DNA of 64,000 nt from Branchiostoma floridae (taxonomy: Eukaryota; Chordata; Leptocardii; Amphioxiformes; Branchiostomatidae): contig NC_049995.1 in the NCBI RefSeq assembly GCF_000003815.2, positions 18,553,319 to 18,617,318 of the forward strand, in the 5' to 3' direction. Each line of letters starts with the position of its first letter. Position 1 is the stretch's first letter. Both the position numbers and the translations under genes were made by a program. This document shows, piece by piece, positions 457-60,895 of this stretch. The notes beneath the pieces were generated by a model that made no database searches, was not told the origin of the DNA, and saw only the letters and a list, made by a program, of their open reading frames with translations.

Positions 457-3400
457 ATGGCAGGTCCGGTCCGAGAACGAGTCACTGCTGCCGACAGGCG
501 CCATTTTGATTTTATGGAAACTTTGCTCCGTATTTCCGATGAACTCACAGAAGAGGAAACACAAAACGTGAAGCTGTTCTGCCGACACCTGATCCCCAGA
601 GGCCATGCGGAACAACTCAGACGGGCGGTGGACGTTTTCAACAAACTGATAGACCTGGACAAGATCGACCAGGAGAATCTCGACTTTATTGAAGAGATCT
701 TAGAAAGAATCGGACGACAGGACCTGATTCGGGACGTTCTGCGGCGGTTCCAGCCGCCTGACCGAGAGATTCCAGAGAATCCCGAACTGCAGCCGGGGAC
801 AAGTCAGCATGGCCAGGGAGCAAATGCAGAAGGTAAGTATCAACTAACATGCAAGAAAATTGTGGATAAGCCTCAAACAAACAAAAATTCAATATTTGTA
901 CAACTTGCTCAGCACCTTGTCTAGAAAGACATTTTAAGGAATTTGCTTAAATCCAACTAGTAATAAAAATCGACAGAGACAATTTTGCGGACTTATGTTA
1001 AATTGACATAAGCATATGTATACTTGATGATTGCAGGAAATGCGACCTCCAACGCCTATGTTGTCGTTCACGGCCAAGTGCGCATGATCCAGGAAACTCT
1101 AGATCGTCTTAGAAACAACATAGCAAGGTTATCTGGCACTAGAAGGTCACAGGTCAAGTACAGAGGTCACAAGAAGCACAAGAGCATCCTGGTGCACTTC
1201 TCCATACCGCGGGAGAACACGGCGGTGCTAAGGCACATGGCGGATCACTCCGACCCGAGACTTGTCTACATGGGCGTCAAGTCACTGCAGATCGATGCTG
1301 AGGTACCCATCCAAATCACACAGGGGGCGCCTGTGTTTGGTGAGTTGACCTTTTTTTCTCTTCATATGCACTCATTTGTCATTTCAGGGCTAAGGTCTGT
1401 GAACTATATGGCTACTGAATCAGATATAACAGCGTTGAATTGGTATCCATCTTCATATGCACCAAATGTTTGAATTGCAGACTATCGAAGCAACTATAGA
1501 TGTCAAAGAAAACAAAATGCCTTAATGTGTCAAATCAGCCAATTCGTAACAGTGCTTTCGGAAAATCTACCATGGCCACATGACTGAAATTGCTAACACG
1601 TCTACGAGACAAATAGACAGAGATGTGGACCTCATCTACACTTTGATAATAAGGACATGATGATGTACGAGATGTCATACTAGTCCATATGTTTCATGGT
1701 GTCATATATCTTTCACTAATGTGTTCCAGATGTCAAGAGGCAACTGCCTGTTGATGACATCGAGGTGGGATGCAGTACCCAGAACAAACACCAGAGGGCG
1801 GCCCAGATCTGGACCCGCCTGTCTGCCCTGAACCTGTTCTCGGACGCCCTGCCGCTCCATCTGCAGGCAGCCGCGAGTCTGGAGTACCAGGGCTTCTCCT
1901 ACAGCCTGGTCCGGGCTCTGGTGCAGAAGGACCGGCTCAGAGAACACCAGATGAGGCAGGCCATCCAGAACCTCAGGAACGCAGAGGTGGATTCCAACAC
2001 GCTCCGTCAGAAGGCAGAGGTGGATTCCAACACGCTCCGTCAGAAGGCAGAGGTGGATTCCAACACGCTCCGTCAGAAGGCAGAGGTGGATTCCAACACG
2101 CTCCGTCAGAAGGCAGAGGTGGATTCCAACACGCTCCGTCAGAAGGCAGAGGTGGATTCCAAAACGCTCCGTCAGAAGGCAGAAATGGATTCCACCACGA
2201 TCATGACTTTGCGCTCCAAGCTCAACATCACAGAGGACTTTGCGCTCCAAGCTCAACATCACAGAGAACAGGCTGAAGGAGGCTCTTGAGACGATCTCAG
2301 TTCTTGAAGAAAAGCTGCAGCAGGCTCAAGAATACGCAGAGAAAGCCGCCAAGCAGGTAACATCGCACAGGACAGAGTACAGGGGAGAGAAGCCGCCTGG
2401 AGGTTGGCCACAGGGGTACAGGGGAGAGAAGCCGCCTGGAGGCTGGCCACAGGAGTACAGGGGAGAGAAGCCGCCTGGAGGCTGGCCGGCACAGGTGGAG
2501 AATGCAGATGCAGCTACACAGACACACCTAACGGACCCTGTTGGTACTACAGGAATACCTGGAGGTGTGGGTGACAAGCTTGGAGCAGACCCGACTGTAA
2601 AGGAAGAAGACGGGAAAACTCCAAGACAAGACTCTGGCAGTGGGAGCAATGAAAAAGAGGATGTTCTCGGTACAGAAGCACCCGAGCAAGAGCGCCACAC
2701 AGCGGGGACAGAAGGAGCGGCACCTGGCTCTACTGGGGACAAGAAACAGGGTGAGATCACTTTTGGTGGGGAAGGATCAGAACCTGGAAAGTTTCGGCTC
2801 CCACGTGGTGTTGTCGTGTCGCCTAGCAACGAGATATTTGTGACTGATATGGGCAACAGGCGAGTCCAAGTCCACAGCACAGAGGGGGTTTACCTGCGCC
2901 ACTTCCCAGCAGTTGTACCGGGTATAGGGGATAATACGATACAGCCACGTGATGTTTGTATGGACGGTAACGGCACGCTGTGGGTAGTGGGGCATGAAGT
3001 GATAGCTGATCATGTTGTACAGTACAGCACGGACGGGACCGCCATGGCGGGGTTTGACTTGAAGAAGATCGATTATGACCGCGGCATTGCAGTAGACATG
3101 CGCACTAACCACATCCTGGTGACTGATCCAGACCAAGGTGAAGTTCAGGTGTTCCGTCCGGACGGCTCCCTGGTGCGGACAGTCCGGCATCCACGGGGTG
3201 AGATGAGACACCCACGGTACGTCACTGTAGACGGGGAAGGGAACATTCTTGTGTCGGACTGGGGCACTCACTGTGTCTACGTGTATGACGAGTCCGGGAA
3301 GTTCCTGTTCCAGTTCGGAGGTCGGGGAAGTAGTGAAGGTCAGCTGACGTATCCCGGCGGCATCTGTACAGACAGCTCGGGGCACATCCTCGTGGCGGAC

Positions 3401-3559
3401 TCTGGGAACGAGAGGGTTCAGATCTTCACACGTCACGGCGAGTTTGTCCGGACCGTCCGTACTGGGTCTGATCCGGAAAGCCTGGCTGTGGGACCGGAAG
3501 GGCAGCTGGTTGTCATCAATTCTTTTAACTGTACTGTGACTGTATATCCCAACTATTAG
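457..3559 (+). CDS. Gene 1: DED / conserved alpha-beta domain / coiled coil / NHL protein, frameshifted
   Basis: Exons are 457-832, 1037-1339 and 1730-3559; all introns are GT-AG and phase 1. The DED is residues about 16-98, with the RxDL motif (RQDL, 87-90) typical of the fold. The second exon encodes the 101-aa conserved domain (about 126-227). The last exon carries seven 11-residue coiled-coil repeats (AEVDSNTLRQK type), three 13-residue EYRGEKPPGGWPQ repeats and an NHL propeller (2751-3556). A 31-bp tandem duplication (2205-2235 and 2236-2266) shifts the frame, so the conceptual product stops at 2287-2289 after 412 aa and lacks the propeller. The downstream frame is open for 439 codons, so the lesion is recent, polymorphic or an assembly error. 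There is no DD exon in the 204-bp first intron. The start is chosen because a splice acceptor abuts this ATG in every paralogue. By family this would be a cytosolic death-fold signalling protein; the role is inferred. Confidence 0.8.
1981..2204 (+). repeat. 33-bp coding minisatellite in gene 1
   Basis: Six full 33-bp copies (1981-2178) plus a diverged seventh encode AEVDSNTLRQK-type hendecads. Five copies are identical at the protein level, the sixth has Lys for Asn, and the last runs into the invariant IMTLRSK segment. An 11-residue period suits an extended alpha-helical coiled coil. This is the longest run in the array; paralogues have two to four copies. Confidence 0.95.
2375..2491 (+). 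repeat. 39-bp coding minisatellite in gene 1
   Basis: Three 39-bp copies encode the 13-residue unit EYRGEKPPGGWPQ, rich in Gly and Pro and so probably an extended flexible linker between coiled coil and propeller. Confidence 0.93.
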
Positions 3560-6645: not shown

Positions 6646-9600
6646 ATGGCAGGTCCGGTCCGAGTAAGTAGAGTCACAGCTGCCGACAGGCGCCATTTTG
6701 ATTTTGTCCAAACTTTGCTCCGTATTTCCAAAGAGCTCACAGAAGAGGAAACGGCAACCATGAAGTTGTTCTGCCTGCATCTGATCCCTAAAGGTCAGAG
6801 GGCACAACTCAAGCGGATAGTGGATGTATTTCACAAGCTGATGGAACTGGACAAAATTGACCAGGAAAACTTGGAATTCATAGAAGAGATCTTGGAAAGA
6901 ATCGGACGACAGGACCTGATTCGGGACGTTCTGCGGCGGTTCCAGCCTCCTGACCGAGAGATTCCGGAAAATCCAGAACTCCAGCCTGAAAACCCCGAGT
7001 TTCAGCCGGAAAACCCCGAACTGCAGCCGGAAAATCCCGAGTTTCAGCCGGAAAACCCCGAACTGCAGCCGGAAAATCCCGAGTTTCAGCCGGAAAACCC
7101 CGAACTGCAGCCGGAAAACCCCGAAAACCAGCCGGAAACCCCCGAACTCCAGCCGGGAGCAAGTCTGTTAGGGACGACAGCAGAAGGTGAGTCACATGTG
7201 GTGGATTTTAAGCCCCACACAACACTGTCTGTACAACTGGCCATACATCTCGTCCTGAAGTACTTTTTCAACACTATTTACGCTTGGGGAGGGCTTAAAC
7301 TCCCCGCGTCAACTTTGAGGCTAGAAAACTTTTCTTAAACTTTTATTGTGAACAATTTTAGGATAATAGATAGTATTTTTTTCCATTTTTCGTGTTGCCA
7401 TGGCAACGGGTTTCTGACAATCATATTATACAAGAATCACAAATTCTGGTTAAAGCCACGAGGTTTCTAAGTTTTCTTGCTAATATAATCTAATATAACA
7501 TTCATAATTGAATATTCGTAATTCATACTAGTGTGATAACGTAATCTGTCACAATCCCAAACGGTGAAAAATGACACAAGGTTTTAATCAAGTCGTTGTC
7601 ACTCGACTATCATTATTAATTTGTACAAAAGCTTCAAAGGAACGTTTTCAGTCTTCTTTATGGTATTTGCTTGATATATGTGGAATAGAATGTATTTACA
7701 GAATCTAAGGTTGCAGATCTAAGATTCAGGATTTCAAAGGAGACCAAAAATACCTATGACTTATGATTTATTTTTACACCATTGCGGTTGCATTTGACAA
7801 CACAAGTCTATAATAAGTCTATTGGACAACATTTCTCTCGTTACATTTTTGTTTAATACAGTACTAAGTCTAAGAGAAATCAATCCTTATTTACACAGTT
7901 TTAGTTAATGAAAACACATATATGACGTCATGTAGTGCAACAATACATGGTTTACATATCCGGGCGATTTTATATTGTGTTGTACAATAAGCTGCACTTT
8001 AGCCCTTGTCTAAAATTTTGCAGCTTTTAGTGCGTCGTGTGATAAACCGAATCATCTCATCTCCTTACGAATGACTTTGGCCCTTTTGTATTCGTGTTTG
8101 TTTCAGGTGACGTGCAGGGATATTTTGACGATGTCATCGAAGAAGTCAGCTACAAGTGGGACGACCTGGCCTGGAAGCTGGGATTTCATGATAACGAAAT
8201 CAAAGTAATCCGAGACTTGGAGCGTGACCATGACCACAGGTGCAGGGAAATGCTGACCAGGTGGGGAAACAGGGAGGGAAGGGGAGCAACTCTACAGGTG
8301 CTGATCCAAGCCCTAAAGAACATTGGTGAAACTCGGACAGCAGAGAGCCTAGAAGGTTTGTATTATCGTCGCTTTGTAAGAAATATCACCATCACGATCT
8401 AGCAGTTCTATAGCAAATTAAAAGGATTAGGCTATTAATATATTACTCTCAACCCAGTTAGAAACGCTTAGAAACCTTTTGATTTTTTTTTAAACAACAC
8501 AAACTTATTATTGATTATTGTTTGCAGGACCTACAACCTCCAACACCTACGTGGTTGTGCACGGCACAGTGCGCATGATCCAGGAAACTCTAGATCACCT
8601 TAAAAACTGCCTGGCAGCGTTAATTGGCACGAGAAGGTCACAGGTCAAGTTCAGAGGTTACAAGAAGCACAAGAGCATCCTGGTGCACTTCTCCATACCG
8701 CGGGAGATCACGGCGGTGCTGAGGCACATGGCGGATCACTCCGACCCGAGACTTGTCTACATGGGCGTCAAGTCACTGCAGATCGACGCTGAAGTTCCCA
8801 TCAAAGTCCAACAGGGGGCGCCGCTGTATGGTGAGCTGACTTCTTTTAGTCTTCATTTGTTCTCTGTCAATTTTAGACTTTTGCAGGTCCATCATCAAAG
8901 AATATGGATTTCATATCCAGTTGCATGAGTAACTAATGGTGTATCAAATTACCTGGATGTCTAATCCTTATCGACGTTCAATGTGGGTTTAAATTTTCTC
9001 TTGCAGAAGAACCATCAAAGACACTATAGATCTTGAAGAGAAACAGAATGTTTCCTTTTAAAAAATCTGCAGTCCATATTATTCCAGTACTTGCCGACCA
9101 TTTCCCATATGCCTGAAACTGCTAGTACCTACAAGTTAGACATGTAAATAGCGATATTTACTTCAACTGTACATGTACTTGGACAAGCAGTCGTTGTACG
9201 TGATGCCATTTCAAACCCTATGTTTTATGATGTCATATCTCTTTCACTGGTGCGTTCCAGTTATCAAGAGACGACTGCCCGTTGATGACATCGAGGTGGG
9301 CTGCAGTACACGCACCAAACACCAGAGGGTGCCCCACAACTGGACCCGTCTGTCTGCCCTGAACCTGTTCTCGGACGCCCTGCCGCTCCATCTGCAGGCA
9401 GCCGCGAGTCTGGAGTACCAGGGCTTCTCCTACAGCCTGGTCCGGGCTCTGGTGCAGAAGGACCGGCTCAGAGAACACCAGATGAGGCAGGCCATCCAGA
9501 ACCTCAGGAACGCAGAGGTGGATTCCAACATGCTCCGTCAGAAGGCAGAGGTGGATTCCAACACGATCATGACTTTGCGCTCCAAGCTTAACATCACAGA

Positions 9601-11008
9601 GAACAGGCTGAAGGAGGCTCTTGAGACGATCGCAGTTCTTGAAGAAAAGCTGCAGCAGGCTCAAGAAAACTCAGAGAAAGCCGCCAAGCAGCTGGCATCC
9701 CACGTGACGGAGTACAGGGGAGAGAAGCCGCCTGGAGGCTGGCCACAGGAGTACAGGGGAGAGAAGCCGCCTGGAGGCTGGCCACAGGAGTACAGGGGAG
9801 AGAAGCCGCCTGGAGGCTTGCCGCAGGAGTACAGGGGAGAGAAGCCGCCTGGAGGCTGGCCACAGGAGTACAGGGGAGAGAAGCCATATGGAGACTGGCC
9901 ACAGGAGTACAGGGGAGAGACAGCGCCAAGTAGTGGTTCGGCAGAGGTCAAGAAGGCAGACGCAGCTACACATACATACCTAGCGGGTCCTGTTGGTACT
10001 GCATGGGGACCTGGCGATGTGGGTGACAAGCTTGGAGAAGACCCGCCTGTAAAGAAAGAAGACAGAAAAACTCAAATACAAGACTCTGCAAGTGTGGGCG
10101 ATGGAAAAGAGGCTGTTCTCTGTACAGAATCACCCGAGCAAGAGCGCCACACAGCGGGGACAGAAGGAGTGGCACCCTGCTCTATTGGGGACATGAAACA
10201 GGGTGTGATCACTTTTGGTGGGGAAGGATCAGAACCGGGAAAGTTTGTGAACCCGCGCGGCGTTGTCGTGTCGCCTAGCAACGAGATATTTGTGGCTGAT
10301 CACAACAACAGGCGAGTCCAAGTCCACAGCACAGAGGGGGTTTACCTGCGCCACTTCCCAGGAGTTGTACCGGGTACAGGGGATAAGGTCATGAAGCCAC
10401 ATGATGTCTGTATGGACGGTAACGGCACGCTGTGGGTAGTGGGGTGGGGAGAGACAGCCGACCATGTTTTACAGTACAGCACGGACGGGACCGCCATGGC
10501 GGGGTTTGACCTGAAGAAGATCGGTTATTCCCGCGGTATTGCAGTGAACATGCGCACTAACTACATCCTGGAGACTGGGGGCAATAATGAAGTTCATGTG
10601 TTCCGTCCGGACGGCTCCCTGGTGCGGACAGTCCGGCATGCCGAGGGTGGGATGACATGCCCACGGTACATCACTGTGGACGGGGAGGGGAACATTCTTG
10701 TGTCGTACTGGTTCAATCACTGTGTCTACGTGTATGACGAGTCCGGGAAGTTCCTGTTCCAGTTTGGAGGTGAGGGAAGTGGTGAAGGTCAGCTGGATAG
10801 TCCCCTCGGCATCTGCACAGACAGCTCTGGGCACATCCTCGTGGCGGACTATGGGAACGAGAGGATTCAGATCTTCACACGTCACGGCGAGTTTGTCCGA
10901 ACCTTCCGTACTGGATTCAGACCGACAGGCCTGGCTGTGGGACCGGAAGGGCAGCTGGTTGTTACCAGTTATTTGAACGACATTGTGACTGTTTATCCCA
11001 GCTATTAG
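6646..11008 (+). CDS. Gene 2: DED-DD / conserved alpha-beta domain / coiled coil / NHL protein (946 aa, intact)
   Basis: Exons are 6646-7186, 8107-8355, 8528-8830 and 9261-11008; junctions are all phase 1, giving 946 codons plus stop. The DED is residues 17-99 with RQDL. Nine PENPELQ-type heptapeptides occupy about 107-169. The DD exon (181-263) has the WDDLAWKLG core, an acidic/basic second half and a leucine-rich last helix. The conserved 101-aa domain follows (264-364). The last exon gives a helical segment and coiled coil (about 429-510), six EYRGEKPPGGWPQ-type repeats (515-592), an acidic variable linker, and a six-bladed NHL propeller (680-946) whose first strand (VITFGG) and last strand (VTVYPSY) can close the ring. 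DED followed by DD is the order found in FADD. There is no signal peptide or membrane segment, so a cytosolic protein is expected. The in-frame ORF extends upstream to 6610, but that start lies across the splice acceptor and is rejected. Confidence 0.9.
6964..7152 (+). repeat. 21-bp coding minisatellite in gene 2
   Basis: Nine tandem 21-bp copies encode PENPELQ/PENPEFQ heptapeptides, often alternating L and F, with PENPENQ and PETPELQ at the end. They form a Pro/Glu/Asn-rich, probably disordered tether between DED and DD. Gene 8 has ten copies, gene 4 three, and genes 3 and 6 one. Confidence 0.95.
7187..8106 (+). other. Gene 2 intron between DED and DD exons, with RFX-type palindrome
   Basis: This 920-bp intron is nearly identical to that of gene 8 (51118-52040) and similar to gene 4 (23660-24525). 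At 7394-7407 it holds the perfect palindrome GTTGCCATGGCAAC, the textbook X-box bound by RFX factors. Otherwise it is AT-rich and non-coding. Confidence 0.7.
8107..8355 (+). other. Death-domain exon cassette of gene 2
   Basis: This 249-nt exon is phase 1 at both ends and encodes one whole death domain. Key residues are W-D-D-L-A and K-L-G-F near the start, C-R-E-M-L-x-x-W in the middle, and an L-x-x-A-L-x-x-I helix at the end. Because it is symmetric, it can be gained, lost or skipped without a frameshift. The acceptor is TTTCAG and the donor AAG/GTTTGT. Confidence 0.85.
9710..9943 (+). repeat. 39-bp coding minisatellite in gene 2
   Basis: Six 39-bp copies encode EYRGEKPPGGWPQ and variants. 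The last two are degenerate (KPYGDWPQ, then TAPSS), suggesting growth from the 5' side. Confidence 0.93.
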
Positions 11009-15934: not shown

Positions 15935-18739
15935 ATGGCAGGTCCGGTACGAGAAAGAGTCACAGATGCCGACAGGCGCCATTTTGATTTTGTGCAAACC
16001 TTGCTCCGTATTTCCGATGAGCTGACAGAAGAGGAAACAGCAAACGTGAAGTTGTTTTGTCTGCATCTGATTCCTGAAGGCCAGTCGGAACAACTGAAGC
16101 GGGCAGTGGACGTTTTCCAAAAGCTGATTAAACTGGACAAAATCGACCAAGAGAATCTTGACTTTCTCAAAGAGCTGTTGGAAAGAATCGGCCGACAGGA
16201 CCTAATTCGGGACGTTCTGCAGCAGTTCCAGCCGCCTGACCGAGAGATTCCGGAGAATCCCGAACTGCAGCCGGGATCGAGTCAGCAGGGCCAGGGAGCA
16301 ATTGCAGAAGGTAAGTAACAACTAACATGCAAGAAAAGTTTGTATAAGCCTCAAATAAAAAATCCATTATCTGGCCGGCAGCCTTACCTCGTTATTTCTA
16401 TGGCATTTGCTCTCAATCCAACTAGTAAAAGAACTCATAAGAAACAATATTTCGGACATGTTTTCAATTAACATAAACACTTGATATTCCAGGACATGCA
16501 ACCTCTAACACCTACGTTGTCGTGAACGGCCAAGTGCGCATGATCCAGGAAACTCTAGATCGCCTTAGAAACCACATAGCAACGTTATCTGGCAGCAGAA
16601 GGTCACAGGTCAAGTTCAGAGGTTACAAGAAGCACAAGAGCATCCTGGTGCACTTCTCCATACCGCAGGAGAACACGGCGGTGCTGAGGCACATGGCGGA
16701 TCACTCCGACCCGAGACTTGTCTACATGGGCGTCAAGTCACTGCAGATCGATGCTGAAGTTCCCATCAAAGTCAAGCAGGGGGCGCCTGTGTACGGTGAG
16801 TTGACTTTGTATTTGTCTTCAATTGTATTTAACATAGACTTAGTCGGTACTTCTCCACTGGTCTGAATTCAGGCACATTCCGTTGGTATTCCAGTTTAGA
16901 CATTGAGTGGTTTTATTTTGGCAATATTTGCGTTTTTCTTCCAAGTTACAAAAATATTTTTGGAAAAAGAAAATGGTTGTCGACGCTTTTACAACATGTC
17001 TAATAGATGTCTAATAGATTGTCCCTAGCTGTCATTTTTTATACAGATAATGCTTTATGTACATGAAATGCAATTTCCATACATCAGAACCATCTAGACC
17101 ATTTACCTGTTGATTTGTGAAGTTAGTTTCACTAAATTTCAGATGTCAAGAGACAACATCCTGTTGATGACATCGAGGTGGGATGCAGTACCCGGACCAG
17201 ACACCAGAGGGCGCCCCAGGGCTGGACCCGTCTGTCTGCCCTGAACCTGTTCTCGGACGCCCTGCCGCTCCATCTGCAGGCAGCCGCGAGTCTGGAGTAC
17301 CAGGGCTTCTCCTACAGCCTGGTCCGGGCTCTGGTGCAGAAGGACCGGCTCAGAGAACACCAGATGAGGCAGGCCATCCAGAACCTCAGGAACGCAGAGG
17401 TGGATTCCAACAAGCTCCTTCAGAAGGCAGAGATGGATTCCAACACGATCATGACTTTGAGTTCCAAGCTCAACATCACAGAGAACAGGCTGAAGGAGGC
17501 TCTTGAGACGATCGCAGTTCTTGAAGAAAAGCTGCAGCAGGCTCAAGAATACGCAGAGAAAGCGGCTAAGCAGGTGGCTTCCCAATTGACGGAGTACAGG
17601 GGAGAGAAGCCACCTGGAGGCTGGCCACAGGAGTACATGGGAGAGAAGCCGCCTGGAGGCTGGTCAGCACTGGTCGAGAAGGCTGATGCAGTTACACAAA
17701 CACACATAGCCGATACTGTTGGTACTACAGGGAGACCTGAGGATCTGGGTGACAAGCTTGGAGAAGATCCGACTGTAAAGCAAGAAGAAAAGAGAACTGC
17801 AAGGCAAGACTCTGACACTGACAATGGGGTCGATGAAAGAGATGATATTTTTAGCACAAAACCAATTGAGGAAGAACAACACATAGCGGTAATAGAAGGA
17901 GCGCCAATTGGCTCTACTGGGGACATAAAACAGGGTGTGGTCTCTTTTGGTGGGGAAGGATCAGTACCTGGAAAGTTTTCTTACCCACGTGGCGTTGTGG
18001 TGTCGCCTAGCAACGAGATATTTGTGGCAGAAAAAGACAACAAGCGAGTCCAAGCCAACAGCACAGAGGGAGTTTACCTGCGCCACTTTCCAACAGTTGT
18101 ACCGGGTACAGGGGATAAGGTCATGGAGCCGCATGATGTCTGTATGGACGGTAACGGCACGCTGTGGGTAGTGGGGGGAGGAAAGATAGCTGACCATGTT
18201 GTACAGTACAGCACGGGCGGGACCGCCATGGCGGGGATTGAACTTAAGAAGGGCTCTTATGACCGGGGTATTGCGGTGAACATGCGCACTAACCACATCC
18301 TGGTAACTGATTGTGACCAAGGTGAATTTCATGTGTTCCGTCCGGACGGCTCCCTGGTGCGGACAGTCCGGCATCCACAGGCTGGTCTGAAACGCCCGGG
18401 GTATGTCACTGTGGACGGGGAAGGGAACATTCTTGTGTCGGACTGGGGCAGGAAATCTGTGAGCCTGTATGACGAGTCCGGAAAGTTCCTGTTCTGGTTT
18501 GGAGGTGAGGGAGGTGGTGAAGGTCAGTTTATCCCTGTGGCATCTGTACAGACAGGGCAGGTAACGTCCTCGTGGCGAACCCTGGGAACAGGAGGGTTCA
18601 TATTTTCACACGTCACGGCGAGTTTGTCCGGACCGTCCATACTAGGTCTAAACCGGAAGGCCTGGCTGTGGGACCGGAAGGGCAGCTGGTTGTCACCGAT
18701 CGGTGGAACGACACTGTGATTATATTTCCTAACTACTGA
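15935..18739 (+). CDS. Gene 3: DED / conserved alpha-beta domain / coiled coil / NHL protein, frameshift in last blades
   Basis: Exons are 15935-16310, 16493-16795 and 17143-18739. The DED (about 16-98, RQDL) has a single PENPELQ after it; there is no DD exon. The last exon has two 11-residue coiled-coil repeats, two 13-residue Gly/Pro repeats and an NHL propeller from about 17937. Relative to the paralogues, 4 nt are missing just after the GEGQ codons near 18524-18530. The open frame then continues in a different reading frame to a stop at 18717-18719 (751 aa), replacing the last one to two blades with unrelated residues. The ancestral stop would be 18737-18739. The shifted tail lacks NHL features, so an intact six-bladed ring is not expected unless the deletion is an assembly error. 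Confidence 0.82.
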
Positions 18740-43193: not shown

Positions 43194-46100
43194 ATGGCAG
43201 GTCCGGTCAGAGAAAGAGTCACAGATGCCGACAGGCGCCATTTTGATTTTATGCAAACCTTGCTCCGTATTTCCGATGAACTGACAGAAGAGGAAACGGC
43301 AAACGTGAAGATCTTCTGCCTACATCTGATTCCTAAGGGCCAACTGGCACAGCTCAGGCGGGCAATGGACGTTTTCGTCAAGCTCATGGAACTGGACAAA
43401 ATTGACCAGGAGAATCTAGATTTTATTAAAGAGATCTTGGAAAGAATCGGCAGACAGGACCTGATTCGGGACGTTCTGCGGCGGTTCCAGCCACCTGACC
43501 GAGAGATTCCGGAAAATCCCGAACTCCAGCCGCCTGGCCGAGAGATTCCGGAAGATTCCGAACTCCAGCCGGAAACCCCCCAACTGCAGCCGGAAACCTC
43601 CGAACTGCAGCCGGAAACCTCCGAACTGCTCCCCGAAACCCCCGTACTGCCGCCAGAAAACCCTGAACCCCAACCAGAAAACCCAGAACTCCAACCAGGT
43701 GAAAGCAATTCATATGAAGCCAATGAAGGTGACTTTTAATGTATTTACATACAATTATTTCTAACGCCTTACTATTTTATACGCTTTTATATTTCTACAA
43801 CGTCAAGTACAGCTTTCCTAGTCCAAAACTCTCATTTCTACGTGGAAAAGAATGTAGAAATATTTGAGATGTTTTTGAGATATTTCTGTAAATTCCTGTT
43901 TTAATTGGCATGAACGTGTCAATGTGTCTGCAAATTCATTTTTGATTAACTTTAACATATCAATAATTATTCATTGAAGGAACAACAACGTCCAACATCT
44001 ACGTGGTCGTACATGGCACAATGCGCATGATCCAGGAAACTCTAGATCATCTTAGAAACCGCCTGGCAACGTTATGTGGCACCAGAAGGTCACAGGTCAA
44101 GTTCAGAGGTTACAAGAAGCACAAGAGCATCCTGGTGCTCTTCTCCATACCGCGGGAGAACACGGCGGTGCTGAGGCACATGGCGGATCACTCCGATCCG
44201 AGACTTGTCTACATGGGCGTCATATCACTGCAGATCGACGCTGAAGTTCCCATCAAAGTCCAACAGGAGGCGCCGTTGTACGGTGAGTTGACTTCTTTTG
44301 CTCTTAATATATTCACAGTTGTCAGTTTCAGAGTCAGGTTCATTAAGACATCGTTACTAAATGTAACAGTGTTGAATTGGCTTTCATGTTCATATGTACT
44401 AACCTTTCTATTGCAGACCATCGAAGCTTATCAGAGATTAAACATATGAAAGAAAATTGAATGTCTCATTTTGACAAAACAGTACTTTTGATCTACCACA
44501 TGACTTAAATCGCCAGCAGGTCTGCTAGACAAAGTTTGCTATACAAATTGATACAGATGTTGTCGGAAAATCTACCATGGCCACATGACTGAAATTGCTA
44601 ACCTCATCTACACTTTGATGATAAGGACATGTACGAGATGTCATACTAATCCATGTGTTCCAGATGTCAAGAGACAACTGCCTGTCGATGATATCCGGAT
44701 GGGATGCAGTACCCGAAGCAAATACCAGAGGGCGCCCCAGAGCTGGACCCGCCTGTCTGCCTTGAACCTGTTCTCGGACGCCCTGCCGCTCCATCTGCAG
44801 GCAGCCGCGAGTCTGGAGTACCAGGGCTTCTCCTACAGCCTGGTCCGGGCTCTGGTGCAGAAGGACCGGCTCAGAGAACACCAGATGAGGCAGGCCATCC
44901 AGAACCTCAGGAACGCAGAGGTGGATTCCAACACGCTCCGTCAAAAGGCAGAGGTGGATTCCAACACGATCATGACTTTGCGTTCAAAGCTCAACATCAC
45001 AGAGAACAGGCTGAAGGAGGCTCTTGAGACGATCCCGGTTCTTGAAGAAAAGCTGCAGCAGGCTCAAGAATACGCAGAAAAAGCCACCAAGCAGGTGACA
45101 GCCCACGTGACGGAGTACAAGGGAGAGAAGCCACCTGGGGACTGGCCACAGGAGTACAGGGGAGAGAAGCCGCCTGGAGGCTGGTCGACACAAGTTGAAA
45201 AGTCAGATGCAGCTACACAGACACACCTAGCGGATGATTTTGGTACTACAGGGGGATCTGGAGATGTGGGCGACAAGCTTGGAGAAGACCCGACTGCAAA
45301 GAAAGAAGACAAAACAGCTGCAAGGCAAGACTCTGGCAGTGGGGGCGATGGAAGAGAGGAATTTCTCGGTACAGAGGCACCCGAGCAAGAGCGACACACA
45401 GCGAGGATAGCAGGAGCGGCAGCTGGCTCTACTGGGGACTTGAAACCGAGTGTGGTCACTTTTGGTGGGGAAGGATCAAAACCTGGAAAGTTTCAGTACC
45501 CATGTGGCGTTGTGGTGTTGCCTAGCGACGAGATATTCGTGGCTGACTACTGCAACAAGCGAGTCCAAGTCCACAGCACGGAGGGGGTTTACCTGCGCCA
45601 CTTCCCAACAGTTGTACCGGGTACAGGGGATAAGGACATGGAGCCACTTGATGTTTGTATGGACGGTAACGGCACGCTGTGGGTAGTGGGGCGGGGAGAG
45701 ACAGCTGAGCATGTTGTACAGTACAGCACGGACGGGACCGCCATGGCGGGGTTTGATCTGAAGAATAGCTCTTATTACCGTGGTATTGCAGTGGACATGC
45801 GCACTAACCAAATCCTGGTGACTGATCGAGACAAAGGTGCAGTTCAGGTGTTCCGTCCGGACGGCTCCCTGGTGCGGACAGTCCGGCACCCACGGGGTGA
45901 GATGACACGCCCACATTACGTCACTGTGGACCGGGAAGGGAACATTCTTGTGTCGGACTGGGACACTCACTTTGTCTACGTGTATGATGAGTCCGGGAAG
46001 TTCCTGTTTCAGTTTGGAGGTGAGGGAAGTGGTGAAGGTCAGCTGAGTGATCCCCTCGGCATCTGTACAGACAGCTCGGGGTACATCCTCGTGGCGGACT

Positions 46101-46258
46101 ATGGGAACGAGAGGGTACAGATCTTCACACGTCACGGCGAGTTTGTCCGGACCGTCCGTACTGGGTCTAACCCGGAAGGTCTGGCTGTGGGACCGGAAGG
46201 GCAGCTGGTTGTCATCAATTCTTTGAACAATACTGTGACTGTCTATCCCAACTATTAG
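43194..46258 (+). CDS. Gene 7: DED / conserved alpha-beta domain / coiled coil / NHL protein (810 aa, intact)
   Basis: Exons are 43194-43728, 43980-44282 and 44664-46258, phase 1. DED about 16-98 (RQDL). The tail is the most diverged Pro/Glu-rich one (PETSELQ, PETPVLP and similar heptads). An alternative donor at 43698 would drop 30 nt in frame. The acceptor of the second exon is TTGAAG rather than CAG. Two 11-residue coiled-coil repeats, two 13-residue repeats, NHL propeller 543-810. Exon and intron sequence is closest to gene 1, so this probably shows what gene 1 encoded before its frameshift. No DD exon. By architecture a cytosolic death-fold protein. Confidence 0.9.
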
Positions 46259-50558: not shown

Positions 50559-53500
50559 ATGGCAGGTTCGGTCCAAAAAAGAGTCACAGCTGCCGACAGG
50601 CGCCATTTTGATTTTGTCCAAACTTTGCTCCGTATTTCCAAAGAGCTCACAGAAGAGGAAACGGCAACCATGAAGTTGTTCTGCCTGCATCTGATCCCTA
50701 AAGAACAGAGGGCACAACTCAAGCGGATAGTGGATGTTTTCCACAAGCTGATGGAACTGGACAAAATTGACCAGGAAAACTTGGAATTCATAGAAGAGAT
50801 CTTGGAAAGAATCGGACGGCAGGACCTGATTCGGGACGTTCTGCGGCGGTTCCAGCCTCCTGACCGAGAGATTCCGGAAAATCCAGAACTCCAGCCTGAA
50901 AACCCCGAGTTTCAGCCGGAAAACCCCGAACTGCAGGCGGAAAACCCCGAGTTTCAGCCGGAAAACCCCGAACTGCAGCCGGAAAACCCCGAGTTTCAGC
51001 CGGAAAACCCCGAACTGCAGCCGGAAAACCCCGAACTGCAGCCGGAAAACCCCGAAAACCAGCCGGAAACCCCAGAACTCCAGCCGGGAGCAAGTCTGTT
51101 AGGGACGACAGCAGAAGGTGAGTCACATGTGGTGGATTTTAAGCCCCAAACAACACTGTCCGTACAACTGTCCATACATCTCGTCCTGAAGTACTTTTTC
51201 AACACTATTTACGCGTGGGGAGGGATTAAACTCCCCGCGTCAACTTTGAGGCTAGAAAACTTTTCTTAAACTTTTATTGTGAACAATTTTAGGATAATAG
51301 ATAGTATTTGTTTTTCCATTTTTCGTGTTGCCATGGCAACGGGTTTCTGACAACCATATTATACAAGAATCACAAATTCTGGTTAAAGCCACGAGGTTTC
51401 TAAGTTTTCTTGCTAATATAATCTAATATAACATTCATAATTGAATATTCGTAATTCATACTAGTGTGATAACGTAATCTGTCACAATCCCAAACGGTGA
51501 AAAATGACACAAGGTTTTAATCAAGTCGTTGTCACTCGACTATCATTATTAATTTGTACAAAAAACTTCAAAGGAACGTTTTCAGTCTTCTTTATGGTAT
51601 TTGCTTGATATATGTGGAATAGAATGTATTTACAGAATCTAAGGTTGCAGATCTAAGATTCAGGATTTCAAAGGAGACCAAAAATACCTATGACTTATGA
51701 TTTATTTTTACACCATTGCGGTTGCATTTGACAACACAAGTCTATAATAAGTCTATTGGACAACATTTCTCTCGTTACATTTTTGTTTAATACAGTACTA
51801 AGTCTAAGAGAAATCAATCCTTATTTACACAGTTTTAGTTAATGAAAACACATATATGACGTCATGTAGTGCAACAATACATGGTTTACATATCCGGGCG
51901 ATTTTATATTGTGTTGTACAATAAGCTGCACTTTAGCCCTTGTCTAAAATTTTGCAGCTTTTAGTGCGTCGTGCGATAAACCGAATCATCTCATCTCCTT
52001 ACGAATGACTTTGGCCATTTTGTATTCGTGTTTGTTTCAGGTGACGTGCAGGGATATTTTGACGATGTCATCGAAGAAGTCAGCTACAAGTGGGACGACC
52101 TGGCCTGGAAGCTGGGATTTCAGGATAACGAAATCAAAGTAATCCGAGACTTGGAGCGAGACCATGACCGCAGGTGCAGGGAAATGCTGAACCGGTGGAG
52201 AAACAGGGAGGGAAGGGGAGCTACTCTACAGGTGCTGATCCAAGCCCTAAAGAACATTGGTGAAACTCGGACAGCAGAGAGCCTGGAAGGTTTGTATCAT
52301 CGTTTTGGAAGATATGTTAAAATTTGCCATCACGATCTACCCTTTATATAACAGTTCTGTAGAAAATTATAAGGGTCAAGAGTTTTCTTCTCCATCCAAC
52401 TAGAAACTATTAGAAATATTTCTGAATAGTTTGTAAAATAGCACAAACATCTTAATAATTATATTGAATTTGCAGGAACTACAACCTCCAACACCTACGT
52501 GGTCGTGCACGGCACAGTGCGCCTGATCCAGGAAACTCTAGATCATCTTAAAAACTGCCTGGCAACCTTAATTGGCACGAGAAGGTCACAGGTCAAGTTC
52601 AGAGGTTACAAGAAGCACAAGAGCATCCTGGTGCACTTCTCCATACCGCGGGAGAACACGGCGGTGCTGAGGCACATGGCGGATCACTCCGACCCGAGAC
52701 TTGTCTACATGGGCGTCAAGTCACTGCAGATCGACGCTGAAGTTCCTATCAAGGTTCAACAGGGGGCGCCTGTGTACGGTGAGCTGACTTTGTGTTTGTC
52801 TTCGTATGCTTGCAGTTGTATTTATCATAGACTTAGTTGGTATTTCTCTACAGGTTTGAATTCAGGTGCATTCAGTTGGTATTCCAGTTTATGCATTGAG
52901 TTGTTTTATTTTGGCAATGTTTTCAATTTTCTTTCAAGTTACAAGAAAATTTTATTGAAAAGGAAAAAGGTTGTTGACGCTGTCATCGTCACCTTTCGTA
53001 GGTACTTTACAACATGTCTAAGACATGTCTAATAGATGTCAAATAGATTGTCCCTAGCTGTCATTTTTATACAGATAATGCTGTATGTACTAGAAATACA
53101 CTTTCCATAAATCAGAACCATCCAGACTGCTTATCTGTTGATTTGTGAAGTTTCTTTCACTAAATGCCTTTCAGATGTCAAGAGGCAACTGCCTGTTGAT
53201 GACATCCAGGTGGGATGCAGTACCCGAACCAAACACCAGAGGGCGCCCCAGAGCTGGACCCGCCTGTCTGCCCTGAACCTGTTCTCGGACGCCCTGCCGC
53301 TCCATCTGCAGGCAGCCGCGAGTCTGGAGTACCAGGGCTTCTCCTACAGCCTGGTCCGGGCTCTGGTGCAGAAGGACCGGCTCAGAGAACACCAGATGAG
53401 GCAGGCCATCCAGAACCTCAGGAACGCAGAGGTGGATTCCAACACGCTCCGTCAGAAGGCAGAGGTGGATTCCAACACGCCCCGTCAAACGGCAGAGGTG

Positions 53501-55028
53501 GATTCCAACACGCTCCGTCAGAAGGCAGAGGTGGATTCCAACACGATCATGACTTTGCGCTCCAAGCTCAACATCACAGAGAACAGGCTGAAAGAGGCTC
53601 TTGAGACGATCGCATTTCTTGAAGAAAATCTGCAGCAGGCTCAAGAATACGTAGAGAAAGTCGCCAAGCAGGTGACATCCCACGTGACGGAGTACAGGGG
53701 AGAGAAGCCGCCTGGAGGCTGGCCACAGGAATACAGGGGAGAGAAGCCGCCTGGTGGCTGGCCACAGGTGTACAGGGGAGAGAAGCCGCCTGGAGGCTGG
53801 CCACAGGAGTACAGGGGAGAGAAGCAGCCTGGAGGCTGGCCGCAGGAGTACATGGGAGAGAAGCCGCCTGGAGAAACGCTACAGGAGTACAGGGGAGAGA
53901 AGCCGCCTGGAGAAACGCTACAGGAGTACAGGGGAGAGAAGCCGCCTGGTGGCTGGTCGGCACAGGTCGAGAAGGCAGATTCAGCTACACAGACACACCT
54001 AACGGATCCTGTTGGTACTACAGGGATACCTGGAGGTGTGGGTGACAAGGTTGAAGCAGACCCGACTGTAAAGGAAGAAGACGGAAAAACTCCAAGGCAA
54101 GACTCTGGCAGTGGGAGCGATGGAAAAGAGGTTGTTTTCGCTACAGAAGCCCCCGAGCAAGAGCGACACACAGCGGGGACAAAGGTAGCGGCATCTGGCC
54201 GTACTGGGGACATGGAACAGCGTGTCATCGCTTTTGGTGGGAGGGGATCAGAACCTGGAAAATTTTCACACCCATATGGCGTTTTGGTGTCTCCTAGCAA
54301 CGAGATATTCGTGACCGATCACGGCAACAGGCGAGTCCAAGTCCACAGCACAGGGGGGGTTTACCTGCGCCATTTCCCCAACAGTTGTACCGGGTAGAGG
54401 GGATAAGGACATGCGGCCACATGATGTTTGTATGGACGGTAACGGCACACTGTGGGTACTGGGGCGGGGAAAGAAAGCTGACCATGTTGTACAGTACAGC
54501 ACGGACGGGACCGCCATGACGCGGTTTGACATTAAGAATAGCTCTTATTACCGCGGCATTGCAGTAGACATACGCACTAACCACATCCTGGTGACTGATC
54601 CAGACCGCGGTGCAGTTCAGGTGTTCCGTCCGGACGGCTCCCTGGTGCGGACAGTCCGGCATTCACGGGTTGGGATGACACGCCCACGGTTCATTACTGT
54701 GGACGGGGAAGGAAACTTTCTTGTGTCGGACTGGGGCAATCACTTTGTCTACGTGTATGACGAGTCCGGGGAGTTCCTGTTCCAGTTTGGAAGTCATGGA
54801 AGTGGTGAAGGTCAGCTGAAGTTTCCCCGCGGTATCTGTACAGACAGGGCAGGTAACATCATCGTGGCAGACCATGGTAACGAGAGGGTTCAGATCTTCA
54901 CACGTCCCCGCGAGTTTGTCCGGACTGTCCGTACTGGGTTTTGGCCGGAAGGCCTGGCTGTGGGACCGGAAGGACAGCTGGTTGTGACCAATGTGACCGG
55001 CACTGTTACTGTATATCCCAACTATTAG
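50559..55028 (+). CDS. Gene 8: DED-DD / conserved alpha-beta domain / coiled coil / NHL protein, 1-nt frameshift
   Basis: Exons are 50559-51117, 52041-52289, 52476-52778 and 53175-55028. DED (RQDL) with ten PENPE heptapeptides, DD exon, conserved domain, four 11-residue coiled-coil repeats, seven 13-residue Gly/Pro repeats (two with GETLQ in place of GGWPQ), then an NHL propeller from about 54230. A run of four Cs at 54376-54379, where paralogues have three, shifts the frame to a TAG at 54395-54397; the product would stop at 777 aa after the first blade. Without the extra C the frame continues to the normal stop at 55026-55028 (987 aa). The rest of the propeller is free of stops, so this is a recent lesion or a sequencing error in a homopolymer. 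The gene is a mosaic of gene 2-, gene 4- and gene 6-like segments. Confidence 0.82.
50874..51083 (+). repeat. 21-bp coding minisatellite in gene 8
   Basis: Ten heptapeptide copies (PENPELQ/PENPEFQ, one AENPEFQ), the longest run in the array, between DED and DD. Confidence 0.94.
51118..52040 (+). other. Gene 8 intron between DED and DD exons
   Basis: Nearly identical to the gene 2 intron over its full length, including the RFX-type palindrome GTTGCCATGGCAAC (51327-51340). Confidence 0.7.
52041..52289 (+). other. Death-domain exon cassette of gene 8
   Basis: A 249-nt phase 1-1 exon. Its second half and the following intron match gene 4, while LIQALKN matches gene 2, so a recombination junction lies within or just after it. 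Confidence 0.85.
53690..53962 (+). repeat. 39-bp coding minisatellite in gene 8
   Basis: Seven 39-bp copies; units 5 and 6 share GETLQ, showing duplication of a variant unit. Confidence 0.93.
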
Positions 55029-57789: not shown

Positions 57790-58088
57790 GACGGATTGAA
57801 GATTAGGAAGATGGCAGCTTCGTCGCAGACTGTGGTGACGTCATGAGTTAACCGATGATAACTAGTATACAAACAACAGTTTACCGATGATGGTTCAGGA
57901 TACGTGACGTGTTTTACCGGTAACATCACCATGTATTATCAGCTGAACAATTAGATACAACATATAAGTCTCTGCACCATCTCTAAAGATCGCACATTAA
58001 CACGTATTTGGTATCAGCGGTTGAATTTCCTGGGAATTGAATTATGATGGATACTTTACGATGCTGTATTCAGTTTTACACCAATAAA

Positions 58089-59094: not shown

Positions 59095-60477
59095 ACACCT
59101 GCTTCACTAAAGGTGAGAAATGTTCACTTCAGCCTGGCGGCCATTTTAGGTCAACGACATATGAAGAAGATTTTACTACCATCATAGTACCATGAAAGTT
59201 AAATTGTTCTTTACGGGGTCGGGCGGGAAGGAGCAGTACACAGTAATTTCGGAATATAAGACGACAAGAGATTTTGGAAAGGTTATACAGGCATTTGTTG
59301 CTTGGAAACGTGATACGAAATGACTGAATTAGTGACGTCAGCGTAACAGATTACTGTATGTAAACAAAAAAAAGTGGTATCAAGTTACGTGGCTGGGGTG
59401 TTTTAACTATAATTTTCACAAACACATGTACAATTTATCTTTTCATGGTTTGGCTGTTCATGACGCACAGCCAAGGCTGCCCAACTAGCCTGTGGCTGCT
59501 ATTAAGGCCTAGCCCTGTTGACAGAGACATGATATTTTATCACTTGTAATACTCTCTTGTAATACTGCTCTTGTACATGTGTTATGTGTGGGATTGTCAT
59601 CGATCATCTTCTCTTCCTTTTGATCATAGATCTATAGAGTTTTAGCATATATCAGTATCATGATCTCTAACTCCGCCCCTTCGGCAGGTCCGCGTGACAT
59701 GTTCATGATTGTTGGACAAACATTCAATGCTGGGTGAGCTGATAATGGCGACTTGTTTGTTTTCGGAGCAACAATATGTTTGAAGGGATAACTGTGTGGG
59801 CGTATCGAACTGTCTTTTAACACCTGAAATGTACATAAGCTATAATAACAAAAAATTATGAAGATGCATATGAGCATGTAAGTATGTTATTTTGGGCAAG
59901 GACGTATCAATGTCCTGATCTCTGTCCCCGCCCCGTGTGACGTAATTGTTGGGAAAAACAAACTCTCTGAAGTCGGTGAACTGACCTTTGGCCGAACTTA
60001 ATCGATTTTCGAGTAGTGGCCATGGGGACAAAGTCTGATTCAAACATATCAGCCAGTACACGACTTGGGCTGCTCTGTGTTCTTTATGATCCGGTCGCAA
60101 GAAGGCGACATGATTTGTACATAAAAACATGTTCTTACGTAGAAGGATTTGTGGTACTAGTCATAGAAATATATTTCTAAAATCATCTTCAATAAAGTTT
60201 TACAGTGACCTTTTGGCACTATCTGGCAGAAATCTAAGTCTATGAGCCTGCAGATTATGAGAGGCAGCACTGAAGCGCCGACTAGTGATTCATGATGGCA
60301 GTACAACCTTGGAATTATCAATTTACCGGAAACAAGATGGTGAACGGGTGGGGGGTGGTGTGTTTGGAAGCCTTTGATGCCGACGGATGTGAAATCATTT
60401 CTCTATTGCAAACCTGTAATAAGTATATCCAATCACCCTTTGGATATTTATATTTTGATGTCGTGTCATTTTTCAGG
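59095..60477 (+). other. Gene 9 upstream region (leader-intron homologue)
   Basis: Contains GGCGGCCATTTTAGGTCAACGAC near 59137 and only fragments of the GC-box/CRE repeat (about 59660-59720, 59920-59950), with no full TGACGTCA. The acceptor TTTTTCAG lies one base before the gene 9 ATG. Confidence 0.55.
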
Positions 60478-60895
60478 ATGGCAGGCCCGGCGAGGGAAAT
60501 TGAAGGGTTCACAGATGAAGACCGACGACATTTTGAGTTCGTGCGGCCTCTCATTCTCATATCTGATTCCCTCACCAAAAAGGAAACGGATGATGTGAAA
60601 ATATACTGTGCGCACGTGATTCCGAAAGGCATGATAAAAGGTTTAAAACGAGCAGTTGACATTTTTCTAAAGCTAAAAGAAATAGGCAAGATCAACCAGG
60701 AGAACTTGGACTTTGTTGAGGAGGTTTTGGAAATGATCGGACGACGTGATTTGGCTCGGGACGTTCTGCGGCCAGCCCAACAACCTGACCGAGCGGTTCC
60801 GGAAAATCCCGAACTCCAGCCGGAAATCCCCGAGCTCCAGCCGGATAATCCTGAGCCCCAACCGGGACCAAGTCAAGAAGAAGCAAGGGCAGAAG
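60478..60895 (+). CDS. Gene 9, first coding exon: divergent DED (partial gene)
   Basis: A 418-nt exon ending phase 1 at GAAG/GTAAGC, as in the other copies. The DED (about residues 18-100) keeps the layout, including RRDL, but many residues differ (KETDDVKIYCAHVIPKG against EETANVKLFCLHLIPKG). It is followed by three PENPELQ-like heptads. No second exon is found in the remaining 3.1 kb, so the rest lies right of the window or is lost. The ORF opens at 60292 but that start lies upstream of the acceptor. It is the outlier of the array. Confidence 0.78.

What the first reader, a model, noticed from the sequence alone, without database searches (positions are those of the whole stretch)
457..60895. 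Tandem array of a DED / (DD) / conserved domain / coiled coil / NHL gene family
Nine copies with the same exon plan lie head to tail. The C-terminal half looks like a TRIM-NHL protein (coiled coil plus NHL propeller), but the RING and B-box are absent and a death-effector domain stands in their place. DEDs normally recruit initiator caspases or kinases and NHL propellers bind RNA or protein. A single chain joining them would be a sensor-oligomeriser-effector recruiter. I know of no named vertebrate protein with this layout.
Basis: partly seen in the sequence, partly recalled or inferred. Interest (0 to 1): 0.88.

Follow-up and report, generated by a model that had tools for sequence, protein, structure and literature searches.

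The report
Lancelet death-signalling receptors with hypervariable propellers
A lancelet chromosome carries a tandem family of more than sixty genes that join a conserved cell-death signalling module to a propeller domain, and one face of that propeller varies like an antigen-binding surface, which suggests a large inherited repertoire of recognition receptors.

Summary
The unnamed conserved domain is TRADD-N. The window is a slice of a 0.6-Mb array with at least 62 copies. The architecture is in print: Kaur 2021 describes lancelet DED + TRADD-N + "WD40" propellers. Here the propeller is NHL, and part of the "low-complexity linker" is a nearly invariant segment without significant Pfam or PDB match.

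Not found in my literature searches: hypervariability confined to one propeller face. In 38 propellers, 20 of 21 hypervariable columns lie in BC/DA loops (one face). dN/dS there is 1.07, against 0.28 in the opposite loops; columns picked on 17 copies give 2.26 on 21 others. The same loop positions are 24/24 identical between lancelet TRIM71 and solved TRIM71. RING/B-box TRIM-NHL genes, including flanking ones, show the same pattern (3–4 sequences). Exons 1–2 and exon 3 have different histories.

Best reading: germline-diversified receptors. The propeller face binds a ligand, coiled coil and TRADD-N cluster or switch the chain, and the caspase-8-like DED recruits death machinery. Closest analogue: fungal HET-D/HET-E. 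Expression, ligand and effector are untested.

The parts
457..3559 (+). Gene 1: DED 475-795, TRADD-N 1045-1344, central segment 1729-1998, NHL 2750-3556. Frame of exon 3 broken in the coiled-coil repeats at an exact 31-bp tandem duplication (2205-2266).
6646..11008 (+). Gene 2: DED 6670-6987, DD 8106-8357, TRADD-N 8533-8835, central segment 9260-9529, NHL 10202-11005. Exon 3 open.
15953..18736 (+). Gene 3: DED 15953-16273, TRADD-N 16501-16800, central segment 17142-17411, NHL 17934-18527 and, in another frame, 18530-18736 (frameshift in the propeller).
23269..27125 (+). Gene 4: DED 23269-23586, DD 24525-24776, TRADD-N 24966-25268, central segment 25578-25847, NHL 26313-27122. Exon 3 open.
29517..32415 (+). 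Gene 5: DED 29517-29837, TRADD-N 30140-30439, central segment 30766-31035, NHL 31609-32412. No DD match. Exon 3 open.
36334..39301 (+). Gene 6: DED 36334-36654, TRADD-N 36901-37200, central segment 37604-37873, NHL 38495-39298. No DD match. Exon 3 open.
43212..46258 (+). Gene 7: DED 43212-43532, TRADD-N 43985-44287, central segment 44663-44932, NHL 45452-46255. No DD match. Exon 3 open.
50577..55028 (+). Gene 8: DED 50577-50897, DD 52040-52291, TRADD-N 52481-52783, central segment 53174-53443, NHL 54378-55025 (residues 53-269 of the query); the first blade is in another frame (53111-54394), so the propeller frame is broken.
60502..60822 (+). Lone DED exon (divergent DED type) without TRADD-N, central segment or NHL in the window.
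   Evidence: PF01335 E 1.6e-13
37685..37858 (+). Central segment core (58 residues, shown in gene 6): 32 of 58 columns invariant over 10 sequences that include four loci on other chromosomes; no significant Pfam or PDB match.
38495..39298 (+). NHL propeller (shown in gene 6), assigned as six blades from the repeat register. Hypervariable columns of the 269-residue reference: 8, 16, 17, 34, 35, 65, 82, 108, 110, 128, 130, 153, 172, 192, 200, 201, 203, 241, 258, 259, 261; 20 of 21 in BC/DA loops.
31014..31137 (+). 33-bp tandem repeat in the coiled coil (AEVDSNTLRQK, 11 residues per unit), shown in gene 5; copy number differs between genes.
53689..53956 (+). 39-bp tandem repeat of the linker (EYRGEKPPGGWPQ, 13 residues per unit), shown in gene 8; copy number differs between genes.

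Best explanation
The array encodes a germline-diversified family of recognition receptors. Shown from sequence: each gene joins an exon for a caspase-8-like DED (sometimes plus a DD exon) to a TRADD-N exon, and then to a large exon with a near-invariant central segment, an 11-residue-repeat coiled coil, a repetitive linker and a six-bladed NHL propeller. The loops on one propeller face vary under diversifying selection while the rest of the propeller is held constant. Exon 3 has a history separate from exons 1-2, so heads and signalling modules have been recombined. Inferred: the variable face binds non-self or altered-self ligands, each paralogue a different one; the coiled coil brings chains together; ligand binding reconfigures TRADD-N (the switch proposed by Kaur et al. 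2021) and frees the DED; clustered DEDs nucleate caspase-8/FADD-like assemblies and trigger cell death or NF-kB-type signalling. RING/B-box TRIM-NHL genes, two of them beside the array, carry the same kind of variable propeller, so one sensor head appears on two chassis: a death adaptor and an E3 ligase.
For: Domains. Array: 62 copies on C17; 65 propellers at 72-91% identity in C17:18.297-18.906 Mb (capped list: 143 of 783 candidates scored). Exon 3 frame of at least 500 aa around the central segment in 50 of 62 (an upper bound, since gene 3 is among them but frameshifted later). Face-restricted variability, 38 propellers: DA+BC loops dN 0.299, dS 0.278, ratio 1.07; AB+CD loops ratio 0.28; strands 0.43. 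20 of 21 columns with at least 8 residue types are in DA/BC loops, the other being the first residue after a DA loop (hypergeometric 3e-11). A rule taken from blade 1 and applied to blades 2-6 gives ratio 1.66 at 20 positions (bootstrap pN/pS 1.25-1.72, 0 of 300 at or below 1), against 0.51 at the 245 columns outside the rule. Columns chosen on 17 propellers give 2.26 on 21 others. All 38 variable-position sets differ, by 16.5 of 21 on average. Codon positions 1, 2, 3 have diversity 0.556/0.551/0.375 at these codons and 0.074/0.055/0.107 far from them. Control: 24 of 24 corresponding positions identical between lancelet TRIM71 and solved TRIM71 at 81% overall identity. TRIM-NHL genes: top face 1.5-1.8, bottom 0.20-0.27. 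Recombination: DED dS between the two DED types 1.459, propeller dS between the same groups 0.185 against 0.200 within type I. RxDL present in 20 of 20 DEDs. Splice sites fit phase 1 throughout: 21/21 exon 3 acceptors, 21/21 TRADD-N donors, 20/21 TRADD-N acceptors, 6/6 and 6/6 for DD, 18/21 DED donors. Death and death effector domains are the most enriched domains among dispensable B. floridae genes (PMC12373286 section 9).
Against: No transcript, protein, ligand or effector was tested. dS is also raised on the variable face (0.278 against 0.138-0.176; 3 of 5000 column shuffles reach it), and fourfold sites within 3 codons of variable codons are more diverse (0.261, 10 sites) than others (0.061, 26 sites), so selection may not be the only cause. 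At the rule positions of blade 2 the ratio is 0.80, and only 1.06 and 1.18 in blades 1 and 6. The loop assignment was made after I had seen variability for 17 of the 38 propellers. No structure model could be made. Pairwise counting between recombining paralogues is not a site-likelihood test. The TRIM-NHL comparison rests on 3-4 sequences. Three of eight window genes are broken.
Confidence: 0.68

Rival explanations
1. Self/non-self recognition between individuals, gametes or symbionts rather than pathogen defence: the same variable face and death output used as an allorecognition system, as in the fungal HET-D/HET-E genes.
For: The positively selected codon pairs of the fungal WD40 propellers sit in the same two loop types, d-a and b-c (PMC1805685 passages). 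Diversity and recombination fit this as well.
Against: DED and TRADD-N are published in many immune-type lancelet and invertebrate combinations, and death/DED genes are enriched among dispensable lancelet genes together with microbe-recognition domains. Nothing here tests ligand origin.
Confidence: 0.15
2. Nucleic-acid sensors: NHL propellers of Brat and LIN-41 bind RNA on this face, so the array would read viral or self RNA motifs.
For: RNA binding by NHL domains of homologues (PMC9634614 passages); nearest solved propeller is TRIM71.
Against: The 21 variable positions carry no consistent positive charge: -5 to +6, mean -0.55 over 38 propellers.
Confidence: 0.1
3. A neutrally drifting tandem family: loops vary because they are unconstrained, and the array is decaying adaptors with no recognition role.
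For: 3 of 8 window genes are broken; 12 of 62 array copies have exon 3 frames under 500 aa; loops generally tolerate change.
Against: dN/dS is above 1 at rule-defined positions and 2.26 in the replicate set, while AB/CD loops of the same proteins are at 0.28 and the same positions are frozen in TRIM71.
Confidence: 0.05
4. Variation is made by targeted mutation (AID-like or retroelement-templated) at these codons rather than by selection alone.
For: Raised silent diversity at and near variable codons; a reverse-transcriptase ORF lies between genes 3 and 4.
Against: At several variable codons the third base is fixed while the first two vary (column 108: T in 38 of 38; column 110: C in 37 of 38), which fits selection on the residue. 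Old lineages kept by selection beside the variable codons would also raise nearby silent diversity. No template repeat was looked for.
Confidence: 0.05
5. Separate genes: the DED and TRADD-N exons are not spliced to the NHL exon.
For: No transcripts were available.
Against: Phase-1 splice signals in nearly all of 21 copies; order DED, TRADD-N, central, NHL kept in 5 of 6 loci on other chromosomes, the sixth (C7) running into a run of N; predicted lancelet proteins with this layout in print.
Confidence: 0.04

Closest known systems
Branchiostoma NCOA6-clade TRADD-N expansion (Kaur, Iyer, Burroughs, Aravind 2021, eLife, PMC8195603; sections 10 and 12 read, passages elsewhere)
   Same: DED, TRADD-N, linker and C-terminal beta-propeller; 13-129 proteins per species; propellers noted as highly variable and diversified by recombination. 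Very probably the same family, though no accession was matched.
   Different: Their text calls the propeller WD40; here Pfam gives NHL and no WD40 family at E <= 1 for the four exon 3 proteins scanned. The linker contains a near-invariant segment. The parts I read do not give the single array, the DD exon, the one-face pattern or the TRIM-NHL relation.
Podospora anserina HET-D/HET-E (NWD) allorecognition NLRs (PMC1805685, passages)
   Same: Beta-propeller with diversifying selection in the d-a and b-c loops of one face, homogenisation of the rest, exchange between family members, and a cell-death output.
   Different: WD40 instead of NHL, fungal, NACHT NTPase core and HET effector; no DED or TRADD-N. 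Convergent in design, not related as a family.
TRIM-NHL (RING, B-box, coiled coil, NHL), including lancelet genes at C17:18.957 and 18.963 Mb (L055), C17:17.306 Mb (L056) and C15 (L007)
   Same: Homologous propeller (52-57% identity in this chromosome's hits) after a coiled coil, with the same face-restricted variability.
   Different: RING and B-box instead of DED and TRADD-N; the RING/B-box/NHL part lies in one open frame.
Vertebrate TRADD and FADD/caspase-8
   Same: TRADD-N and death-fold domains in one pathway; the DED is nearest caspase-8 DED1.
   Different: TRADD has a C-terminal DD and no DED or propeller (recalled); neither has a variable sensor.

Membership tests
DED proteins | Pfam DED above cut-off | tested here: met
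   (up to 71.3 bits, cut-off 35.9)
DED proteins | RxDL motif (named in PMC4558505, passages) | tested here: met
   20 of 20 DEDs examined
DED proteins | Recruits caspase-8, FADD or FLIP | not testable with these tools
   only sequence similarity to caspase-8 DED1
NCOA6-clade TRADD-N | PF13820 / PF20694 above cut-off | tested here: met
NCOA6-clade TRADD-N | Tiny residue + Ser (uS) motif in the beta2-beta3 turn | tested here: inconclusive
   KHKSILV with invariant Ser in 21 copies, but Lys, not a tiny residue, before it; turn position judged by eye (motif)
Lancelet DED-TRADD-N-propeller expansion (Kaur 2021) | DED, TRADD-N, linker, propeller in order, in many copies | tested here: met
Lancelet DED-TRADD-N-propeller expansion (Kaur 2021) | Propeller is WD40 | tested here: not met
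   NHL PF01436; no WD40 family at E <= 1; best PDB matches are TRIM-NHL
TRIM-NHL | RING and B-box | tested here: not met
   no RING or B-box family in the exons of array genes scanned at E <= 1; both found in L055 genes
TRIM-NHL | Coiled coil followed by NHL propeller | tested here: inconclusive
   NHL met; coiled coil inferred from the 11-residue repeat, no predictor run
NLR / STAND (as HET-E) | NACHT or NB-ARC NTPase | tested here: not met
   none among Pfam matches of the exons scanned; introns not scanned
Diversity-generating retroelement target | Template repeat and dedicated reverse transcriptase | not tested
   only a generic RVT_1 ORF was seen in the window
Variable immune receptor family | Diversifying selection on one exposed face | tested here: met
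   with the limits given; face inferred from antiparallel loop topology, not from a model
Variable immune receptor family | Induced by or binding non-self | not testable with these tools
   none

The most novel reading that the evidence does not exclude
A chordate carries an anticipatory repertoire in which one kind of recognition head, an NHL propeller with about twenty hypervariable residues on a single face, is mounted on two signalling chassis: a DED-TRADD-N death adaptor (over 60 copies in one array) and a RING/B-box ubiquitin ligase. Recombination shuffles heads against signalling modules and a symmetric phase-1 DD exon is optional. Animals would thus have converged on the fungal HET-D/HET-E design, without an NTPase.
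Probability: 0.45. Interest if true: 0.86.

Novelty: new variant of a known kind. Interest (0 to 1): 0.72.

Why it matters
If right, an invertebrate chordate has a repertoire of receptors diversified in the germline, wired straight to death-domain signalling, with the contact residues already mapped. That makes three things directly testable: what the variable face binds, whether clustering through TRADD-N and DED activates caspase-8, and whether the same head on a TRIM chassis sends the same ligand to ubiquitination. It also gives an animal counterpart to fungal propeller-based allorecognition with selection in the same two loops.

Tried and rejected
RNA sensing as the main idea: no consistent charge at variable positions. 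WD40 label: rejected by Pfam and PDB. UBA-like reading of the central segment (it resembles IAP UBA domains by eye, from memory): not supported; no Pfam match better than E 0.17 for four sequences and the best PDB profile match E 1.1 is an unrelated enzyme. NCBIfam and PADLOC gave nothing of use (best E 0.066 and 0.0029, judged chance). TRADD-N by single-sequence search of the PDB gave no match at E <= 1, so its fold rests on Pfam. Hypermutation: considered, not favoured. Blade-by-blade distance correlations are low, but the propeller tree is nearly star-like, so I do not count them as proof; exon-level dS and the site-compatibility test (0 of 1000 permutations) carry the recombination claim. 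Central segment and NHL, in the same exon, also show no distance correlation (r 0.13, 563 of 2000).

Rows dropped before counts. DED 20 of 21 copies (one with a stop after ungapped extension); NHL 17 of 21 (two partial, one without a match, one with a stop after extension). One search adds L006 and L035-L054; none of those 21 was dropped. The fetched copies are a part of the array: 21 central segments of 62, and 38 propellers of 65.

Absence in print rests in open-licence PMC only; subscription papers and supplements were not searched. Papers: PMC8195603 sections 10 and 12 plus passages; PMC12373286 section 9 plus passages; PMC2575513, PMC10907252, PMC4558505, PMC1805685 and PMC9634614 passages only.

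Full report
What is there. The window (C17:18553319-18617318 of a 513-Mb genome in 431 contigs) contains eight genes head to tail on the + strand, each with a DED exon, a TRADD-N exon and one long exon with a central segment, coiled-coil repeats, a repetitive linker and an NHL propeller. Genes 2, 4 and 8 have an extra Death-domain exon between DED and TRADD-N. A ninth DED exon at 60502-60822 has no partner exons in the window. Exon 3 is open in genes 2, 4, 5, 6 and 7, and broken in 1, 3 and 8.

How big it is. A 90-aa central query finds 68 matches in the genome, 62 of them in C17:18.299-18.905 Mb, 59 on the + strand, with 50 of 62 in open frames of 500 aa or more. A TRADD-N query finds 70 matches including three fragments. 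A propeller query finds 65 places in C17:18.297-18.906 Mb at 72-91% identity; outside, apart from a partial 80% match at C17:11.23 Mb, matches are at 60% or less (only 143 of 783 candidates were scored, so these are lower bounds). Thirteen DD exons at 80% identity or more lie in the array. Six copies lie on other chromosomes; five of the six loci fetched keep the order DED, TRADD-N, central, NHL (two of them with a frame change or stop in exon 3), and the sixth (C7) runs into a run of N after the central segment.

Gene structure. In 21 copies examined, splice signals fit phase 1 at every junction: exon 3 acceptor 21/21, TRADD-N donor 21/21, TRADD-N acceptor 20/21, DD acceptor and donor 6/6 each, DED donor 18/21. 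DD and TRADD-N exons are therefore symmetric 1-1 exons that can be gained or lost without a frame change, which fits the optional DD.

What the domains resemble. The DED is nearest caspase-8 DED1 among solved structures (E 1.6e-11; FADD 1.4e-6) and keeps RxDL in 20 of 20. The DD is nearest THOC1 (E 1.3e-6) and RIPK1 (E 4.9e-6), with FADD further off. The propeller is nearest TRIM71 NHL (E 1.4e-67). The central segment has 32 of 58 columns invariant over ten sequences, including four loci on other chromosomes, and no significant Pfam or PDB match.

Constraint by domain. Mean pairwise dN/dS among array copies: DED 0.146/0.728 (20 copies), DD 0.073/0.233 (6), TRADD-N 0.090/0.221 (21), central 0.032/0.109 (21), NHL 0.136/0.198 (17). 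The propeller as a whole is the least constrained.

One variable face. I assigned six blades from the NHL register. In a four-stranded antiparallel blade, BC and DA loops lie on one face and AB and CD loops on the other. Over 38 propellers: BC+DA (77 columns) dN 0.299, dS 0.278, ratio 1.07; AB+CD (34 columns) 0.28; strands (158 columns) 0.43. No column shuffle of 5000 reached the observed dN or entropy. Of 21 columns with eight or more residue types, 20 are in BC or DA loops and one is the residue just after a DA loop; all six blades contribute (hypergeometric 3e-11). Every one of the 38 propellers has its own combination, and pairs differ at 8 to 21 of the 21 positions, mean 16.5, while other columns differ at 16% on average. 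The common residues there are D, R, G, Y, E, S, K and H.

Guarding against circularity. The segmentation was written after I had seen column entropies of 17 propellers. I therefore tested a rule from blade 1 on blades 2-6: ratio 1.66, bootstrap pN/pS 1.25-1.72, 0 of 300 at or below 1; by blade 0.80, 1.92, 2.67, 3.55, 1.18, so blade 2 does not exceed 1. Columns chosen on the 17 and measured on 21 others gave 2.26; the face as a whole gave 1.11 against 0.23 for the opposite loops. The thirty closest pairs gave 1.30 against 0.23. In TRIM71, the same 24 positions are all identical between the lancelet gene (L003) and the solved protein 6fpt (zebrafish by recall), at 81% overall identity. So these loops are not fast in every NHL protein.

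Selection or mutation. At the variable codons, positions 1 and 2 are more diverse than position 3 (0.556, 0.551, 0.375), the reverse of the rest (0.074, 0.055, 0.107 far away). At column 108 all 38 codons end in T, and at column 110 37 of 38 end in C. This points to selection on the residue. Against a pure selection reading, dS is raised on the face (3 of 5000 shuffles) and fourfold sites near variable codons are more diverse (0.261 over 10 sites, against 0.061 over 26). Old lineages held by selection beside these codons while conversion homogenises the rest would do this; local mutation bias is not excluded.

Recombination. Two DED types differ by dS 1.459, and their TRADD-N by 0.263. Yet propeller dS between the same groups is 0.185 (two type II copies only), no more than within type I (0.200), and the central segment shows 0.097 against 0.112. 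DED and TRADD-N distances agree (r 0.76, 1 of 2000 permutations), while DED and NHL do not (r -0.16) (16 copies). Within the propeller, nearby sites are more compatible than shuffled ones (0 of 1000), and r-squared falls to background beyond about 30 bp. Heads and signalling modules have been exchanged.

Origin of the head. RING/B-box/NHL genes lie 43-60 kb beyond the last array copy (L055) and at C17:17.3 Mb (L056), with propellers about 55-57% identical in the hit list. With three sequences their top face gives 1.78 and bottom 0.27; with four, 1.48 and 0.20. This suggests the same kind of variable head on two chassis; the sample is small.

Literature. Kaur et al. 2021 describe lancelet DED, TRADD-N, low-complexity linker and WD40 propellers in 13-129 proteins per species, with propellers diversified by recombination, and propose TRADD-N as a switch (PMC8195603 sections 10 and 12). 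The layout is therefore known. The NHL identity, single array, DD exon, one-face selection and TRIM link are not in the parts I read, and my searches found no paper on them (open-licence PMC only). Podospora HET-D/HET-E propellers have selected codon pairs in the d-a and b-c loops and concerted evolution elsewhere (PMC1805685 passages), the closest working analogue. Death and death effector domains lead the enriched domains of dispensable B. floridae genes (PMC12373286 section 9).

Mechanism. Shown from sequence: constant DED/TRADD-N/central module, variable one-face propeller, exchange between copies. Inferred from families: ligand binding by the face, clustering by the coiled coil, TRADD-N switching, and DED recruitment of caspase-8-like effectors. 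Untested: expression, location in the cell, ligand, output. No signal peptide or membrane-segment predictor was run, so the intracellular site is assumed from the DED.

Verdict. A real, large and coherent family; architecture known; evolutionary behaviour striking and apparently unreported. New variant of a known kind, interest 0.72.

Noticed in passing
G000 C15:19.589-19.636 Mb and C15:21.231-21.244 Mb (outside the window): DED and NHL matches alternate about 4 kb apart on the same strand (for example DED 19593295 and NHL 19589499), with no PF20694 TRADD-N match listed on C15: perhaps a second, separately built DED-NHL family.
   Followed up: partly
window 20999-22480, - strand: 493-aa ORF with a reverse transcriptase match (RVT_1, E 3.7e-7) between genes 3 and 4.
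   Followed up: no
G000 C17:18788596-18791358, - strand: Two propellers and a central segment in one 929-aa open frame: a double-headed copy.
   Followed up: no
window 1977-2199, 2375-2487, 6964-7156, 9709-9920, 31014-31137, 37852-37941, 50874-51087, 53422-53545, 53689-53956: In-frame minisatellites of 33, 39 and 21 bp in coiled coil, linker and post-DED region, with copy numbers that differ between genes; the 33-bp unit adds 11 residues, which would keep a hendecad coiled-coil register (inference).
   Followed up: partly
L033 (C11:13558501-13565500), 2123-2752: This paralogue has two DEDs in tandem, like caspase-8 and FLIP.
   Followed up: no
G000 C6 and C215: Death domains 64-73% identical to the array's DD occur in clusters on C6 and C215, so the optional DD exon may come from, or pair with, another expanded family.
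   Followed up: no
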